DNA from: Candidatus Aenigmatarchaeota archaeon
GTDB lineage: Archaea; Aenigmatarchaeota; Aenigmatarchaeia; GW2011-AR5
Length of the DNA: 64,000 nucleotides
NCBI GenBank assembly: GCA_016187335.1
Contig: JACPJW010000001.1
Span: forward strand, 68,547 to 132,546
Reading direction: 5' to 3'
Both the position numbers and the translations under genes were made by a program. Positions within the stretch are counted from its first letter, which is position 1, and every line of letters starts with the position of its first letter. Positions 6,145 through 54,688 of the stretch are shown here, one piece after another. The notes beneath the pieces were generated by a model, which was not told the DNA's origin, did no database searches, and saw only the letters and a list, made by a program, of their open reading frames with translations.

Positions 6145-6500
6145 TGGTTACGAGGCTAGGCCGGGTAGCTAGCGGTTGCCTGTAGAGACCCTTTTCTTTT
6201 GGAAAGAAAAGCGTCTACGGAAAAGAAACACATTATGATATGATAGGCGGAAGCCGTAGTTTTCGTAGACGTTTTTGAGCATGCTCAAAAAGGTCTTGGG
6301 CAAAACCGTCAGTCCGCTTCAGACGGGGCCGAAGCCCAAAGGCGGTGCAGTCGCTTCAAAAAGCCCGTTGTTCAAGCAACGAAGCCCAGCCCGCTGGGAT
6401 TTCTTCTGTAGCAAACCGGGTCAGGCGGGGAACCGAGCAGCCCTAAGTTATAGTCGGAATGCTCAGCGGTATCTGGGTGGAGCAAGAACTCCGGACAAAC
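6145..6500 (+). ncRNA. ffs: Signal recognition particle (7S) RNA
   Basis: The 5' domain has GGCTAGGCCGGG typical of archaeal SRP RNA. A GGGGCCGAAGCCC element follows near 6325-6337. The universally conserved helix 8 appears at 6419-6444 as GTCAGG, a GGAA loop, then AGCAGCCC, which binds SRP54. A TATA-like CTTTAAGA near 6121 is about 25 bp upstream of the RNA. The ends are approximate. Between the 5' domain and helix 6 lies a ~110-nt insertion, described separately. Confidence 0.85.
6186..6295 (+). other. Extra structured insertion inside SRP RNA
   Basis: Where archaeal SRP RNAs usually go directly from the 5' domain (TGTAACC-like) to the AAACCG helix, this gene has about 110 extra nucleotides. 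They are closed by AGACC (6186-6190) pairing with GGTCT (6291-6295). Inside are three hairpins: CTTTTCTTT/AAAGAAAAG, CGTCTACG/CGTAGACG, and the perfect palindrome TTTTTGAGCATGCTCAAAAA. The words match palindromes elsewhere in the window. It may be a tolerated expansion or an intron; the sequence does not decide. Confidence 0.6.
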
Positions 6501-6538
6501 TTTTTGCAGCTTCTGCATCCACTGCGGGCGCGCCTCTT

Positions 6539-6570
6539 TCAAACTTCTTTAGAAAAGAAGTTTGATCAAG
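6539..6570 (+). repeat. Dispersed hairpin repeat, AAACTTCTTT variant
   Basis: AAACTTCTTT, a TAG loop, and AAAGAAGTTT are followed by GATCAAG. A nearly identical copy lies at 35811-35840. Both sit just downstream of a structured RNA gene and just upstream of the twin hairpin described below. Confidence 0.7.
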
Positions 6571-7792: not shown

Positions 7793-7980
7793 TTCTTGCT
7801 CAGAGAAGCTTTGCTTCTCTGGCATCTCAACTCGAGGAAAGCAAAGCTTTCCTGAGTCTTCAGAAACCTTTGGTTTCTGCAAGAAGAGCTCTGCTCTTTG
7901 AAGATTTCCGTAGACGCTTTCTTTTTGATCAAACTTTTTCTAAAAGTTTGTTTTTGATCAAACTTTTTCTAAAAGTTTGT
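7793..7980. repeat. Palindrome cluster with tandem GATCAAAC repeats
   Basis: Successive hairpins fill this gap: AGAGAAGC/GCTTCTCT, AGGAAAGC/GCTTTCCT, CAGAAACC/GGTTTCTG and AAGAGC/GCTCTT. Two direct copies of the GATCAAACTTTT-TCT-AAAAGTTTG repeat follow at about 7924-7980. The last copy abuts the stop of the pilin at 7980. No coding sequence is credible here. Confidence 0.7.
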
Positions 7981-11810: not shown

Positions 11811-12536
11811 TCACCACGTTGCGTTGAAAGTGTTCTTTATCCTCAGGAAATCCTCCCTGCTTTTCAGCTTTATGTCGAAGAACCCGTGAAGCGCCGACTT
11901 TTCCTGCGTAGGCGGCGCAATCCTTGCAGGTATTGCCTCAATTACATTATCGCTGCGCCTTGCGTAAATAAGCGTGACATTGACAACTCCGCTTGAAACG
12001 CTTGAAGTGAACGACGCGCTGGCGTTGGTCTTGTCGTTCACTATGCCCATGGCAGCGGATGATGGCGTTGAGTCCGTTGCGTTGACCGTGACGTTTATGT
12101 TGTCATTCAGGAAATTGCCCACGGTCACCGTATATTTCGTGTTGTTTACAGAAACTAATGCGTAAAGGATTTCTATATCCTCTTCGCCCCGCAGGAACGT
12201 GGAGAAATCCGCCAGGTTGGCTATGGCCGAGCTGTTCGCATTGCCCTGGACCCTGCTTACAATGATTATTTTCTCGTATTCGTGGTATATGTTTCTCAGT
12301 TCCTTGTCGAGAATCATCGTTTCCTGGAACCTTTTTTCCTCCAGCGTATTGTATATGCCGAAAACTCCGCGCAGGAGGAAGAACGCTATCAGGATTATCA
12401 GCCCGGCTATCACGAACATCTGCCCTTTAGAGGAGAAAAACCTGGCGGTTTTTCTCCCTCTACCCTCATTTCCCTTATTATTTTTTGACCTCTGAGAAGG
12501 TCTTCCGTTTTGATTGAACTTTTTTGAAAAGTTCAT
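11811..12536 (-). CDS. Pilin-like protein with FFSSKG leader (out-of-frame leader copy)
   Basis: This protein reads ARFFSSKG then QMFVIAGLIILIAFFLL, a pilin-like helix. The chosen ATG at 12536 overlaps the upstream stop as ATGA, which suggests coupled translation and a 38-residue leader. The ATG inside its leader palindrome (12469), used by paralogues, is out of frame here because the palindrome is 1 nt shorter, and it runs into a stop. The mature domain is rich in N-x-S/T sequons. The start is therefore uncertain. Confidence 0.6.
   Translation of the reverse strand: MNFSKKFNQNGRPSQRSKNNKGNEGRGRKTARFFSSKGQMFVIAGLIILIAFFLLRGVFGIYNTLEEKRFQETMILDKELRNIYHEYEKIIIVSRVQGNANSSAIANLADFSTFLRGEEDIEILYALVSVNNTKYTVTVGNFLNDNINVTVNATDSTPSSAAMGIVNDKTNASASFTSSVSSGVVNVTLIYARRSDNVIEAIPARIAPPTQEKSALHGFFDIKLKSREDFLRIKNTFNATW
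12423..12469 (-). repeat. Leader palindrome B
   Basis: This 47-nt copy of the pilin leader palindrome has a perfect AGAAAAACC/GGTTTTTCT stem. One nucleotide is missing relative to copy A, so its internal ATG reads MRVEGEKPPGFSPLKG and terminates shortly after. Confidence 0.6.
12487..12536. repeat. Two-part palindrome overlapping stop/start
   Basis: GACCTCTGAGAAGGTC is followed by CCGTTTTGATTGAAC and a TTTTGAAAAGTTCA stem. The repeat supplies the ATGA overlap between two pilin-like genes (TGA of the upstream gene, ATG of the downstream one). A variant with GAACTCTGAGAAGTTC, showing compensated pairs, occurs at 15319-15335. Confidence 0.6.
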
Positions 12537-34686: not shown

Positions 34687-35538
34687 TTACAAGAAAACCT
34701 TCGCCAGCGTCAGCAGGACGCCAGCTCCGAAAAGCATTGCGGAACCTAAAATTACCTTCATCCTGATTTTCTTGTCCTTGATTTCCTTGAAGTAGAAAAG
34801 CCCCCAAAGAACGCCGACGAGCAGGGCAAGCTGCGTGAGCGGCGCGCCGATTGCAAGCCCCAGATAAGTTATTGCGTAGAGCGAGCTTAGCATAGCAACA
34901 GACCACATAAATCCGGAAATCATGCCCGGCTTCACCTGGTTTTTGACAACTTTTCTTACCTTCACCAGAAACAGGATTGACGATGCTGCAATTATGCCGG
35001 CGGCCATCGGAAACAGGAATTCGTTTATGCCTAAGTTGCTCAGCTTGAAAAGAAAGGCCGGTGCGCCGAAAAACAGTCCTGCAAAGAAGGCTGCGGCAAG
35101 CCCTTTATTGTCCGCATTTATTTTCTCTTTGCCCTGCGACACAAGCACAAGGCCGGCCAGAAATACAAGCACGCCAAAAGCGCCGAGCGCAATATTAAGC
35201 GGCTCCACGAAGAAAAATGTCCCTGAAAGGAACGTGATAATCAGCGGCATTCCTAACGGAATAGCCGTGCCCTTTGCGATGCCTATTCTTTCTATCGACA
35301 CGATATGAAGCACGTTCCCGATATTCCACAAGATTCCTGCAAGAATGCCGAAATAATTCAAGGCAAAAGGAAACCCCAGCATGAATGTCAGCGCGACGCT
35401 TGTTCCTAAAATTCCCAGCGCCATGAACATGTTGTAGTGCAGCATGTTCGGATTTTTCATCCGCTTTAAGGGCACGAACTGCGAGCCCCAGAATAAAGCA
35501 GAAACAGAAGCCGCCGCCACGCCAAGAAGCAGGGACAT
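34687..35538 (-). CDS. GRP/TMEM144-like sugar transporter, ten TM helices
   Basis: This 283-residue membrane protein is made almost wholly of hydrophobic helices. It has FWGSQFVPLKR near the N-terminus and LWNIGNVLHIVSIERIGIAKGTAIPLG in the middle, the pattern of the glucose/ribose porter (RhaT/GRP, drug/metabolite transporter) family. The substrate is not clear. It reads away from the tRNA gene. Confidence 0.72.
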   Translation of the reverse strand: MSLLLGVAAASVSALFWGSQFVPLKRMKNPNMLHYNMFMALGILGTSVALTFMLGFPFALNYFGILAGILWNIGNVLHIVSIERIGIAKGTAIPLGMPLIITFLSGTFFFVEPLNIALGAFGVLVFLAGLVLVSQGKEKINADNKGLAAAFFAGLFFGAPAFLFKLSNLGINEFLFPMAAGIIAASSILFLVKVRKVVKNQVKPGMISGFMWSVAMLSSLYAITYLGLAIGAPLTQLALLVGVLWGLFYFKEIKDKKIRMKVILGSAMLFGAGVLLTLAKVFL

Positions 35539-35630
35539 AAGATTACATGCGCCGTCAGATTAAAAAGCTTGCCCACTATGTTCATTTGATTCGGGCCTGT
35601 AGTCTAGCTTGGTAGGATTCGGGCTTCGGG

Positions 35631-35695
35631 CAAACTTTTCCAAAAGTTTGATCAAAAGGATGAGCTTCTAAGAGCTCAAGGAAAAGTTTAGAACC
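35631..35695 (+). other. tRNA-Pro intron 1 (position 37/38), repeat-derived
   Basis: The intron begins C, then AAACTTTTCC, which pairs with GGAAAAGTTT near its 3' end. Inside is AAAAGTTTGATCAAAAGG and a GAGCT/AGCTC hairpin. The first 29 nt are the reverse complement of the dispersed repeat at 45112-45141 with almost no change. The location suits the tRNA splicing endonuclease; an exact bulge-helix-bulge is not obvious from reading alone. Confidence 0.75.
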
Positions 35696-35717
35696 AGTCC
35701 GTGGCGGGAGTTCAAAT

Positions 35718-35763
35718 TGAACTTTTCCGAAAAGTTCAATCAAAAGGGAAAGTTCATGAAAAT
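35718..35763 (+). other. tRNA-Pro T-loop insertion, repeat-derived
   Basis: The insertion follows TTCAAAT of the T-loop. It starts TGAACTTTTCC and ends GGGAAAGTTCA plus TGAAAAT, the two arms pairing. Its inner part AAAAGTTCAATCAAAAGG copies the layout of intron 1. Non-canonical T-loop introns are known in some archaea. Its exact ends are ambiguous by 1-3 nt. Confidence 0.7.
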
Positions 35764-35779
35764 CTCCCCGGGCCCATTC

Positions 35780-35840
35780 AAACTTTGCTGCTCCAAAGTT
35801 TGATCAAACAAACTTCTTTGGAAAAGAAGTTTGATCAAGA
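35780..35840. repeat. Palindromes downstream of tRNA-Pro
   Basis: CAAACTTTG-CTGCTC-CAAAGTTTG and AAACTTCTTT-GG-AAAAGAAGTTTGATC lie in tandem. The second matches the repeat downstream of the SRP RNA (6539-6570) and leads into the second copy of the covarying hairpin. Confidence 0.65.
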
Positions 35841-35849
35841 AAATAATAT

Positions 35850-35883
35850 GGTCTGGACAGAATCGCAAAGCGATTCTGGGCAG
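35850..35883 (+). ncRNA. Covarying 34-nt hairpin, copy 2
   Basis: It has the same lower stem and GA/GG internal loop as copy 1 at 6601-6634, with the upper stem ATCGC/GCGAT and an AAA loop. The upstream 40 bp (AAACTTCTTT repeat, AATAATAT) are also shared. It lies between tRNA-Pro and the convergent TrmI gene. No function is known. Confidence 0.5.
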
Positions 35884-35898
35884 TGTGGTCAAAAGACA

Positions 35899-36645
35899 CT
35901 ACAAAACCTTCCTCCCGAAAGTGATGAATCCGGTGTGCACAATCTGGGAGGGACGGGGATGCGTGTAGTCGCTGACCTGCCAGTCGACCTGCTGCGTTGA
36001 TATCGTTTTTATCTGCGCGAACTTGTTCTTTTCCAGCTCCTTCACAGCCCTTTTCTGCTGCTCGATGTGCGGTGAGTAGATGCAAAGCCATCCGCCGCTT
36101 TTCAGCGCTGTTTTGCATTTTTTCACCATCTTGTCCGCGTCAATCATGTCCAGCGTTATCATGTCCAGGTTTTTTTCCGTAAAGCGCTCCGCCGGCTTGT
36201 TTTTTATATTCACTGTGCCAGCAAGACCACAGAACTCTATGTTCCTTTTTGCGTTCTCGTAGAATTTCTTGTTCTTCTCGTAAGTTGTTACGGAGCCGCT
36301 GGGCTTTACGATATTGCCGAGGAATATTGACAGGAAAGCAGAGCCCGTGCCTGCATCAAGGCAGTGCCAGCCGCTGCTTACGCCTGTGTGCGCAGCTATC
36401 TGGCCGGCGTCCTTGGGCATGATTATCTGCGGCATCCTCTTTGCCTTGCGAAGCAAATCCAGTATGGTGGGTTTTAGCACGACAAATTCGTGGCCGGTGT
36501 TGCTTTTCAGAACCTGGCCGTATTTCTTTATTTTCGTAAGGTCAAGAAGACCGTAATTCGTTGAAAACTTCTTCTGCGCAATGTCGGCGATGAAAGAACG
36601 CTCGCCCAAAAGAAGAATCTTGCCCGACGGTTTTTCTTTTTTCAT
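35899..36645 (-). CDS. trmI: tRNA (adenine-N1)-methyltransferase TrmI
   Basis: This 248-residue SAM-dependent methyltransferase has an N-terminal small beta domain and a Rossmann fold with HTGVSSGWHCLDAGTGSAFLSIFLG (motif I) and DMITLDMIDADKMV. The family makes m1A at positions 57/58 in the T-loop of archaeal tRNAs. The start overlaps the stop of the upstream DUF131 gene as ATGA. Its T-loop substrate lies on the same RNA class interrupted next door, which may be coincidence. Confidence 0.85.
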   Translation of the reverse strand: MKKEKPSGKILLLGERSFIADIAQKKFSTNYGLLDLTKIKKYGQVLKSNTGHEFVVLKPTILDLLRKAKRMPQIIMPKDAGQIAAHTGVSSGWHCLDAGTGSAFLSIFLGNIVKPSGSVTTYEKNKKFYENAKRNIEFCGLAGTVNIKNKPAERFTEKNLDMITLDMIDADKMVKKCKTALKSGGWLCIYSPHIEQQKRAVKELEKNKFAQIKTISTQQVDWQVSDYTHPRPSQIVHTGFITFGRKVL

Positions 36646-44440: not shown

Positions 44441-45145
44441 TCAAAGGGGGTATTTTAAGTTTGGGAGATTGCTTCGCTTCATGCTTATCCTGAGCCACGC
44501 CAGCCAGAAAATAATAACAGCGGTTATCAGCCCCCAGCTCCACACCACGGCGTGAACCAGAGCAAAATTAGCGATATCAAAAGTGACGACGTACCAGAAA
44601 ATGAACCATATGCGGCCGATATTTACAAGATAAATAACCGGCGCAAGCAGCAAAAAGCCCTTTATTTTCGTGCGCAGCGGCAGCTCCGTGGCAAAAATGA
44701 GCGCGAACAAAGCAAGAACAGATTTCCATCCGACGCAGTCCCAGTTTATCAGCGCGCCCCAGCTGCCGTTCTTGACGGCAACGGAAATCACGTTCCCGTA
44801 GGCAGCGGGACTGAAGCCTGTTGCCGCAAGCAGTGAAAAGACAATATTGTACGTTGTATCTATGAGCAATCCTGATTGCCACCCTGTCAGAAGCAGAAAG
44901 TAAAGCGGTATAGCAAAAATATTGAACTTGGCAATAAAGCGGAATAGCGGGTAGTATTTATTCTTCCGGAATTCGTTAAAGACGGAACGGAAAGTTCTGC
45001 CCTTAATTCGAGATGCAATACTGACTTTACTTTTCTTGTTTCCAAAGAAGCCGCCTTTTCCTTCCGCCTTATTTCGCCTAAATCGGCGGCTTCGATTTTC
45101 ATTAACGATCCTTTTGATCAAACTTTTTGGAAAAGTTTGTTTCAT
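44441..45145 (-). CDS. Archaeosortase/exosortase family transpeptidase
   Basis: This 234-residue membrane protein has the catalytic Cys in NWDCVGWKS, an Arg in NIGRIWF and a His in ALVHAVVW, the archaeosortase triad. It removes C-terminal anchors and attaches proteins to lipid. About six helices follow a long basic N-terminal tail. The first ~15 residues are encoded by a dispersed repeat that also encodes the end of DUF460. No protein with an obvious C-terminal sorting signal was found in the window. Confidence 0.8.
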   Translation of the reverse strand: MKQTFPKSLIKRIVNENRSRRFRRNKAEGKGGFFGNKKSKVSIASRIKGRTFRSVFNEFRKNKYYPLFRFIAKFNIFAIPLYFLLLTGWQSGLLIDTTYNIVFSLLAATGFSPAAYGNVISVAVKNGSWGALINWDCVGWKSVLALFALIFATELPLRTKIKGFLLLAPVIYLVNIGRIWFIFWYVVTFDIANFALVHAVVWSWGLITAVIIFWLAWLRISMKRSNLPNLKYPL

Positions 45146-53770: not shown

Positions 53771-54688
53771 CTATTCCAAAATCCTGACGTCATCCACGAC
53801 GCCGTCGTAATCGCTGTCCAAGCCAAGGACAACGTGCGCGTTCTTTTTCTGTATTTCATCGAAGCGCTTGAGAAGAGCAAGCACGGCCGCGCGCGTTCCT
53901 GAAAACCTTTTCCCGGCTATGAGCAGCAGCTTGCTTTTCCGGTTGAAAGGGTTGTCCGCCTTGACGATGATGCCGCACTCGTCGCTCCTATAAGTTTTTT
54001 TCGTGAGCGATGAGTAGATGTTCTTTTTTGCGTCGAACCGGACGGGCAGCTTGTCATTGACCGCCCTGGTTATCCTGTTTATGACGGGCCCGCCGATTAT
54101 TATCAGGTTTTCTTTTACCTCATGCAATTCCGTGTCAAGAACAACAGAAGGCTCGCTTTTGTTAAGGAACGTTCCCAGAAACAGCGCAAGGTCTATGGCA
54201 TAGGAAGCATCGCGTGAGCGGGCGCGCTCAGGGCCGTGAGGGTCAGGCGAGCCCACGACGATCTTCGCATTGAAAACGCCTTCAGCAATGAAGGGTTCAA
54301 GGAATTTGTTGGCTGTTTTAGGAATTTTCTCCGTCTTCTCAAAGTCGCGGAATTTCAGGAAGAAAGAAGGCTTTGTCAAAACATAAATTTTTGCCAATGT
54401 TCCTCCTCTTTCCTCTTTCCTCAGGACCCTTATGATTCCTTGCTTCTCTAGGTTATGTACATGGTAGTAAACCTTCTGCTCGTGCATGCGCAGTTGCGCA
54501 GCCATTTCCTTGGGGTACGAAGGTTTTTTCGCGAGGGAATGCAGGATCTTCATCGCCGTCTCAGAAAAATCGGCCTTGCCAAGCTCCGCCGAGGGCAGCG
54601 CCAGCACCCTGCCGTCTTTTTCTTCAACTACAAATGCCATTATAACCACAAGTCTCTTTTGATTGAACTTTGGAGCAGCAAAGTTCAT
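53771..54688 (-). CDS. Winged-helix protein with S-layer-like outer domain
   Basis: The N-terminal half carries an ArsR-like winged helix (MKILHSLAKKPSYPKEMAAQ, MHEQKVYYHVHNLEKQGIIRV). The rest resembles archaeal S-layer-like domains (NLIIIGGPVINRITRAVND, LLLIAGKRFSGTRAAVLALL). There is no signal peptide, so it is probably cytosolic. A TATA box near 54711 favours the ATG at 54688, whose first 17 codons lie in a dispersed repeat; the ATG at 54640 is the other choice. The 3' end is the source of the 31-bp direct repeat. Confidence 0.65.
   Translation of the reverse strand: MNFAAPKFNQKRLVVIMAFVVEEKDGRVLALPSAELGKADFSETAMKILHSLAKKPSYPKEMAAQLRMHEQKVYYHVHNLEKQGIIRVLRKEERGGTLAKIYVLTKPSFFLKFRDFEKTEKIPKTANKFLEPFIAEGVFNAKIVVGSPDPHGPERARSRDASYAIDLALFLGTFLNKSEPSVVLDTELHEVKENLIIIGGPVINRITRAVNDKLPVRFDAKKNIYSSLTKKTYRSDECGIIVKADNPFNRKSKLLLIAGKRFSGTRAAVLALLKRFDEIQKKNAHVVLGLDSDYDGVVDDVRILE
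53775..53805. repeat. 31-bp direct repeat, right copy (att-like)
   Basis: This lies in the last codons of the wHTH/S-layer-like gene, encoding DGVVDDVRILE-type end. The identical copy at 51789-51819 bounds the other side of the three-gene block. Confidence 0.75.

What the first reader, a model, noticed from the sequence alone, without database searches (positions are those of the whole stretch)
35593..35776. tRNA-Pro gene interrupted twice by copies of a dispersed genomic repeat
The tRNA folds well only if 65 nt after position 37 and about 46 nt in the T-loop are removed. Seen directly: both insertions share one plan (arm AACTTTTCC, inner AAAAGTTT-GATCAAAAGG or TTCAATCAAAAGG, closing arm GGAAAAGTT). 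They match, in reverse complement, the repeat found at gene borders, for example 45112-45141. Known: archaeal tRNA introns sit at 37/38 and more rarely in the T-loop and are cut by a splicing endonuclease. Inference: the repeat can colonise structured RNA genes because it can be spliced out, making it an intron-like mobile palindrome.
Basis: partly seen in the sequence, partly recalled or inferred. Interest (0 to 1): 0.92.

Follow-up and report, generated by a model that had tools for sequence, protein, structure and literature searches.

The report
tRNA introns from a jumping hairpin
In a tiny uncultivated archaeon, a proline tRNA gene is cut in two places by introns that belong to a small hairpin repeat scattered through the genome, and the same repeat families interrupt many of its other essential RNA genes, so this looks like a very active, intron-like mobile element in an archaeal genome.

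Summary
Confirmed. Window 35593-35776 is a tRNA-Pro(CGG) that is complete only after removing 65 nt at 37/38 and 46 nt at 59/60. Both inserts sit in bulge-helix-bulge (BHB) splice motifs: the T-loop one is perfect, the 37/38 one has one G.A mismatch. Both belong to a dispersed hairpin family, xyAACTTTTCnRAAAAGTTy'x'ATCAAAA: 84 copies in the genome, 0 in simulated genomes, outer pairs covarying in 82/84. Members also interrupt other tRNAs, 16S and 23S rRNA; a sister family interrupts tRNAs, rRNA and SRP RNA. A congener lacks the T-loop introns of tRNA-Pro and tRNA-Ile, and of 32 conserved gene borders carrying a copy in either genome only one carries it in both. The own 16S intron is 47/50 identical to a tRNA-Ser intron of the congener. 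In RNA genes the 5' splice site is the hairpin foot. Splicing is predicted, not shown. How the hairpin moves is unknown; no Y1 transposase or reverse transcriptase was found. Intron transposition among tRNAs is known in Thermoproteales; spread across RNA classes and gene borders appears new.

The parts
35593..35630 (+). tRNA-Pro exon 1 (positions 1-37; anticodon CGG at 35627-35629)
35631..35695 (+). intron 1, position 37/38, 65 nt: arm A CAAACTTTTCC, arm B AAAAGTTTG, tail ATCAAAAGG, second hairpin GAGCTTCTAAGAGCTC, arm C GGAAAAGTTT, then AGAA|CC
   Evidence: BHB with bulges GG^C and CC^A, central helix TTCG:AGAA (3 pairs + G.A), inner helix of about 10 bp
35696..35716 (+). tRNA-Pro exon 2 (positions 38-59)
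35717..35762 (+). intron 2, T-loop position 59/60, 46 nt; arms TGAACTTTTCC, GAAAAGTTCA, tail ATCAAAA, GGGAAAGTTCA, then TGAA|AA
   Evidence: perfect BHB: outer 5 bp, bulges AA^T and AA^T, central TTCA:TGAA 4 bp, inner 11 bp; 44/46 identical to the tRNA-Ile T-loop intron at C1:25956-26010
35763..35776 (+). tRNA-Pro exon 3 (60-73)
45112..45139 (-). gene-border copy of the hairpin (CAAACTTTTCCAAAAAGTTTGATCAAAA), sense to its gene; forms the C-terminal codons of the 350-aa ORF and overlaps the next ORF; no third arm, not a split gene
12508..12535 (-). dispersed copy followed by second hairpin AGACCTTCTCAGAGGTC, the same two-hairpin plan as intron 1
7923..7979 (-). tandem pair of dispersed copies
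54657..54687 (-). copy of the CTTTGCTGCTCCAAAG sub-family (same plan and tail)
6149..6539 (+). SRP RNA gene carrying an insert of about 120 nt that begins with a family-2 unit (GACCCTTTTC..GAAAAGCGTCTACGGAAAAG)

Best explanation
The locus is a functional tRNA-Pro(CGG) gene with two BHB introns. SHOWN: the two inserts belong to a dispersed, polar hairpin family (A arm, B arm, ATCAAAA tail) that has been gained and lost repeatedly between congeneric species and that enters tRNA and rRNA genes. INFERRED, likely: in RNA genes the copies that persist carry a third arm C, so that A pairs with C and a 4-bp helix with the 5' exon completes a BHB. The splicing endonuclease EndA cuts at the hairpin foot and 16-38 nt after the tail, and RtcB joins the exons. 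INFERRED, weaker: the unit moves as a short hairpin of about 34 nt (DNA, or an RNA copy of it), mobilised in trans or by ectopic recombination. Insertions between genes persist because they are harmless; insertions in RNA genes persist only if spliceable.
For: Two-excision recovery of the tRNA by blind genome scan. BHB score of copies in RNA genes is far above null, with the 5' splice site at the hairpin foot (offset 0 or -1 in most strong cases); intergenic copies are at null. In T-loop introns the exon/intron central helix covaries: TTCA/TGAA in Pro and Ile, TTCG/CGAA at C2:821272, TCCG/CGGA at C2:431603. Congener's tRNA-Pro lacks the T-loop intron, has a D-loop intron instead, and keeps the same 37/38 splice end AGAACC around a different repeat family. 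Empty T-loop site in congener's tRNA-Ile. 21 own-only, 10 congener-only, 1 shared gene-border copy among 235 conserved borders. 16S intron 47/50 identical to congener's tRNA-Ser anticodon intron. 9 of 10 third-arm copies lie inside tRNA/rRNA genes. EndA and RtcB present. CCG is the commonest Pro codon and no other CGG-Pro gene was found.
Against: No RNA data. Intron 1 has a G.A mismatch in the BHB central helix. The nearest-neighbour minimum-energy fold (-66.6) is not the BHB/cloverleaf fold (-46.2), although it contains both A:C intron stems. No mobilising enzyme identified. 72 kb of the genome is withheld.
Confidence: 0.82

Rival explanations
1. RNA-level mobility: excised intron RNA is re-inserted into other transcripts by reversal of EndA/RtcB chemistry, copied to DNA and recombined.
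For: Gene-border copies between co-directional genes are 29 sense to 4 antisense; the intron's 5' splice site equals the hairpin foot; the same intron occurs at 59/60 in two tRNAs and in 16S versus tRNA-Ser.
Against: No reverse transcriptase domain in the genome; border copies lack the third arm and BHB; antisense copies carry U-runs that may be purged as terminators, which would also give the bias.
Confidence: 0.25
2. DNA-level miniature element (REP/MITE-like single-strand hairpin) mobilised in trans by a transposase; orientation bias is later selection.
For: About ten of 160 copies are flanked by 11-27-nt direct repeats, several starting exactly at the hairpin foot; motif with the same stem and tail recurs across archaeal phyla; hairpin with a conserved single-stranded tail.
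Against: No Y1 transposase in own genome or congener, though some relatives have one; the two outer stem bases differ freely between copies, unlike copies of one master.
Confidence: 0.35
3. The T-loop and anticodon introns spread only by gene conversion between tRNA genes; the gene-border hairpins are an unrelated regulatory or terminator motif that resembles them.
For: T-loop introns sit at one position in several tRNAs; border copies are not BHB introns; tandem and near-stop placement.
Against: Same core, loop, tail and two-hairpin extension in both classes; sharing between tRNA and 16S; near-complete turnover of border copies between congeners.
Confidence: 0.15
4. The locus is a decayed tRNA pseudogene.
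For: Interrupted twice.
Against: All exon pairings and T-loop intact, congener retains the same gene with other introns, only CGG gene found, CCG is the commonest Pro codon.
Confidence: 0.04

Closest known systems
BHB tRNA introns of Thermoproteales, large-scale tRNA intron transposition (Fujishima et al. 2010, cited in PMC4033280)
   Same: Several introns per tRNA, non-canonical positions, similar intron sequences in different tRNAs, EndA-type splicing.
   Different: Different phylum; here the families also occupy 16S, 23S and SRP RNA and 60-odd gene borders, have a defined three-arm plan, and turn over between congeners.
Intron-rich tRNA genes of Atabeyarchaeia and Freyarchaeia (PMC11291895)
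   Same: Most tRNA genes interrupted, often several times and off 37/38.
   Different: In the passages read of that paper no dispersed repeat was linked to the introns.
Thermoproteales 16S rRNA introns (PMC4496867)
   Same: BHB introns in rRNA; the own 16S also has two introns of about 600 nt, at least one with a LAGLIDADG-like frame.
   Different: The 44-50-nt rRNA introns here encode nothing and share sequence with tRNA introns.
Eukaryotic introners / introner-like elements (from memory)
   Same: A short repeat that spreads and is removed as an intron.
   Different: Protein-only tRNA splicing, RNA genes instead of mRNAs, border copies not spliceable.
REP/MITE-like palindromes and IS200/IS605 derivatives (from memory)
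   Same: Short hairpin with conserved single-stranded tail, many copies between genes.
   Different: No Y1 transposase in the genome; orientation bias; intron form.

Membership tests
Archaeal BHB (EndA) introns | Two 3-nt bulges separated by a 4-bp helix at the exon/intron borders | tested here: met
   Intron 2 perfect; intron 1 with one G.A mismatch in the helix
Archaeal BHB (EndA) introns | Removal restores a functional RNA | tested here: met
   Mature tRNA-Pro(CGG) recognised by ARAGORN
Archaeal BHB (EndA) introns | Splicing endonuclease and RtcB ligase in the genome | tested here: met
Archaeal BHB (EndA) introns | Observed excision in vivo or in vitro | not testable with these tools
   needs RNA
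Transposed tRNA introns (Thermoproteales type) | Near-identical introns in different tRNA genes, with empty sites in relatives | tested here: met
   Pro and Ile T-loop introns 44/46 identical; congener empty at both
IS200/IS605 (Y1) derived elements | Y1 transposase able to act in trans | tested here: not met
   No PF01797 in own genome or congener (72 kb withheld, congener 56% complete)
Group II introns / retroelements | Reverse transcriptase in the genome | tested here: not met
   No PF00078 in the own genome (72 kb withheld)
Spliceable intron (for gene-border copies) | BHB above null | tested here: not met
   5% of 66 copies against 2% null at score 18
Described Rfam family | Match to a curated RNA model | tested here: not met
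   No match at E<=1 in 35401-36000

The most novel reading that the evidence does not exclude
An archaeal introner: a self-spreading hairpin of about 34-50 nt that enters structured RNA genes of every class (tRNA, 16S, 23S, SRP) and gene borders, whose 5' end is the 5' splice site, and whose spread, possibly through an RNA intermediate, is a main source of archaeal tRNA and rRNA introns in DPANN and other archaea.
Probability: 0.4. Interest if true: 0.9.

Novelty: new variant of a known kind. Interest (0 to 1): 0.76.

Why it matters
Where archaeal tRNA and rRNA introns come from, and how they reach new genes, is open. Here a single sequence family links tRNA introns, rRNA introns and gene-border repeats, with empty and filled sites in two congeneric genomes, so intron gain becomes directly testable in metagenome reads. 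It also warns that ordinary tRNA and rRNA finders miss most such genes: ARAGORN called only two complete tRNAs with an assigned anticodon in the visible genome.

Tried and rejected
Protein-gene introns: the two ORF junctions that carry a copy (C2:113658, C2:752052) looked like split genes, but reading the frames shows two separate genes with the hairpin at the stop codon. Border copies as introns: no BHB signal. Y1 transposase and reverse transcriptase as movers: absent. Thermodynamic folding as proof of the BHB: not informative; the MFE keeps the A:C stems but mispairs the 5' half, and my first hand-drawn fold had a register error corrected. ARAGORN single excision recovered few tRNAs because most carry several introns. 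Literature search with the repeat's letters returned only unrelated papers. Viral contigs: only two hits, not followed. A C2:898998 copy with a third arm first looked like an intron but lies antisense beside a tRNA.

Full report
WHAT IS THERE. The window is C2:68547-132546 of a 1.01-Mb two-contig genome. Its congener G001 is the public MAG JACQIH, Candidatus Aenigmatarchaeota NC_groundwater_1120 (contig C1 is 11,255 bases with matches at the same positions as JACQIH010000037), so the host is an aenigmatarchaeon (inference). Window 35593-35776 reads as tRNA-Pro(CGG) with introns of 65 nt (35631-35695, position 37/38) and 46 nt (35717-35762, position 59/60). ARAGORN sees no tRNA in the raw window. 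I scanned the whole visible genome for BHB-like segments, removed them in pairs and ran ARAGORN: 2.1 million variants gave tRNA-Pro(cgg) here with exactly these two segments.

THE SPLICE SITES. Intron 2 has a textbook BHB: GGGAG / TTCA / AA^T ... TGAA / AA^T / CTCCC, inner helix 11 bp. Intron 1 has bulges GG^C and CC^A, a central helix TTCG:AGAA with one G.A mismatch, and an inner helix of about 10 bp. EndA (202 aa) and RtcB genes are present. No other CGG-Pro gene was found; TGG-Pro is uninterrupted at C2:580252, and CCG is the commonest proline codon. Splicing itself is inferred.

THE REPEAT. Both introns contain xyAACTTTTCnRAAAAGTTy'x'ATCAAAA. The genome has 84 such copies; order-3 Markov genomes have none. 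The two outer stem pairs take nearly every identity yet pair in 82 of 84 copies each; the next base, the A of ATCAAAA, does not pair. A pattern of 22 fixed bases from this motif hit 67 contigs in GTDB representatives, 65 of them labelled archaeal, with the same stem length and tail (78/78 and 74/78 pairs). In the class sample, copies concentrate in the own genus (37 and 9). Intron 1 also shares the second hairpin (..CTTCTnAGAG..) with gene-border copies (by eye).

RNA-GENE COPIES. Members interrupt tRNA-Thr (D-loop), tRNA-Arg(TCG) (D-loop), tRNA-Ser(GGA), an apparent tRNA-Leu, tRNA-Ile (T-loop) and others, 16S rRNA twice and 23S rRNA (C2:209925 inside the LSU span). The SSU and LSU genes span 3.3 and 5.8 kb. 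A second family with the same plan (CCCTTTT..AAAAGCGTnnACGGAAA, 28 strict copies) interrupts tRNAs, 16S and the SRP RNA. In RNA genes the copies have three arms: A can pair with B (local hairpin) or with C. Of 18 scored copies in RNA genes half reach a strong BHB score (null 4%), with the 5' splice site at the hairpin foot; 66 gene-border copies do not exceed the null. Of ten third-arm copies nine lie in tRNA or rRNA genes.

MOVEMENT. Against congener G001 (median protein identity 71%), conserved gene borders show 21 own-only, 10 congener-only and 1 shared copy. G001's tRNA-Pro lacks the T-loop intron, has a D-loop intron instead, and keeps the 37/38 splice end AGAACC around a family-2 interior. 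Its tRNA-Ile T-loop is empty (TTCAAAT), whereas the own gene carries a 46-nt intron 44/46 identical to the Pro one. The own 50-nt 16S intron matches the anticodon-loop intron of G001 tRNA-Ser at 47/50. About ten of 160 copies are flanked by direct repeats of 11-27 nt, several starting at the hairpin foot. Copies between co-directional genes are sense 29 to 4 (p about 1e-5; copies of tandem pairs are counted separately, so p is somewhat optimistic); archaea-wide the bias is weaker, 24 to 11.

MECHANISM AND LIMITS. I commit to spliced introns derived from a mobile hairpin (0.82). How it moves is open: a DNA hairpin mobilised in trans (0.35) or RNA-mediated insertion (0.25). No Y1 transposase or reverse transcriptase was found in the own genome; some relatives have Y1. 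72 kb of the genome is withheld, G001 is 56% complete, and gene calls are simple longest-ORF calls.

PRIOR ART. tRNA intron transposition in Thermoproteales and multiply interrupted tRNAs are known (PMC4033280, PMC11291895), as are rRNA introns (PMC4496867); a mobile-element origin of a tRNA intron has been proposed in Caldiarchaeum (PMC3293823). I found no report of one dispersed repeat serving as introns of tRNA and rRNA and as gene-border repeats; the library holds only open-licence papers.

Noticed in passing
window 6149-6539 (C2:74695-75085): SRP RNA gene holds an insert of about 120 nt between consensus positions ~36 and 59 that starts with the second repeat family; probably also an intron.
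   Followed up: partly
C2:239678-242953 (-) and C2:208275-214038 (-): 16S and 23S rRNA genes are about twice normal length; the 16S has at least eight inserts, two of them about 600 nt, at least one with a LAGLIDADG-like reading frame.
   Followed up: partly
C2:738831-739030 (-): The first 16 nt of a tRNA gene (GCCGAAGTGGCTCAGT) are duplicated on both sides of one hairpin copy, like a long target duplication.
   Followed up: partly
genome C2 and G001: A further dispersed repeat, AATAATAAGGRAATGAG..GAGAGAAACCGnnAGGTTTCT, recurs at gene borders and in introns of both congeners.
   Followed up: no
L101, L126, L135: In Diapherotrites and a 'Ca. ainarchaeum' MAG, copies sit in frame next to a duplicated QGT/QGS-E motif that looks like a class III signal peptide (pilin-like) gene.
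   Followed up: no
C1:25956-26250: tRNA-Ile D-loop insert contains a short unit (AATGCACGGAAAGAAAAAG) repeated several times in tandem.
   Followed up: no
C2:580364-580467 (-): tRNA-Pro with apparent anticodon AGG, unusual for archaea, and a 30-nt intron apparently inside the 3' anticodon stem (about 40/41).
   Followed up: no
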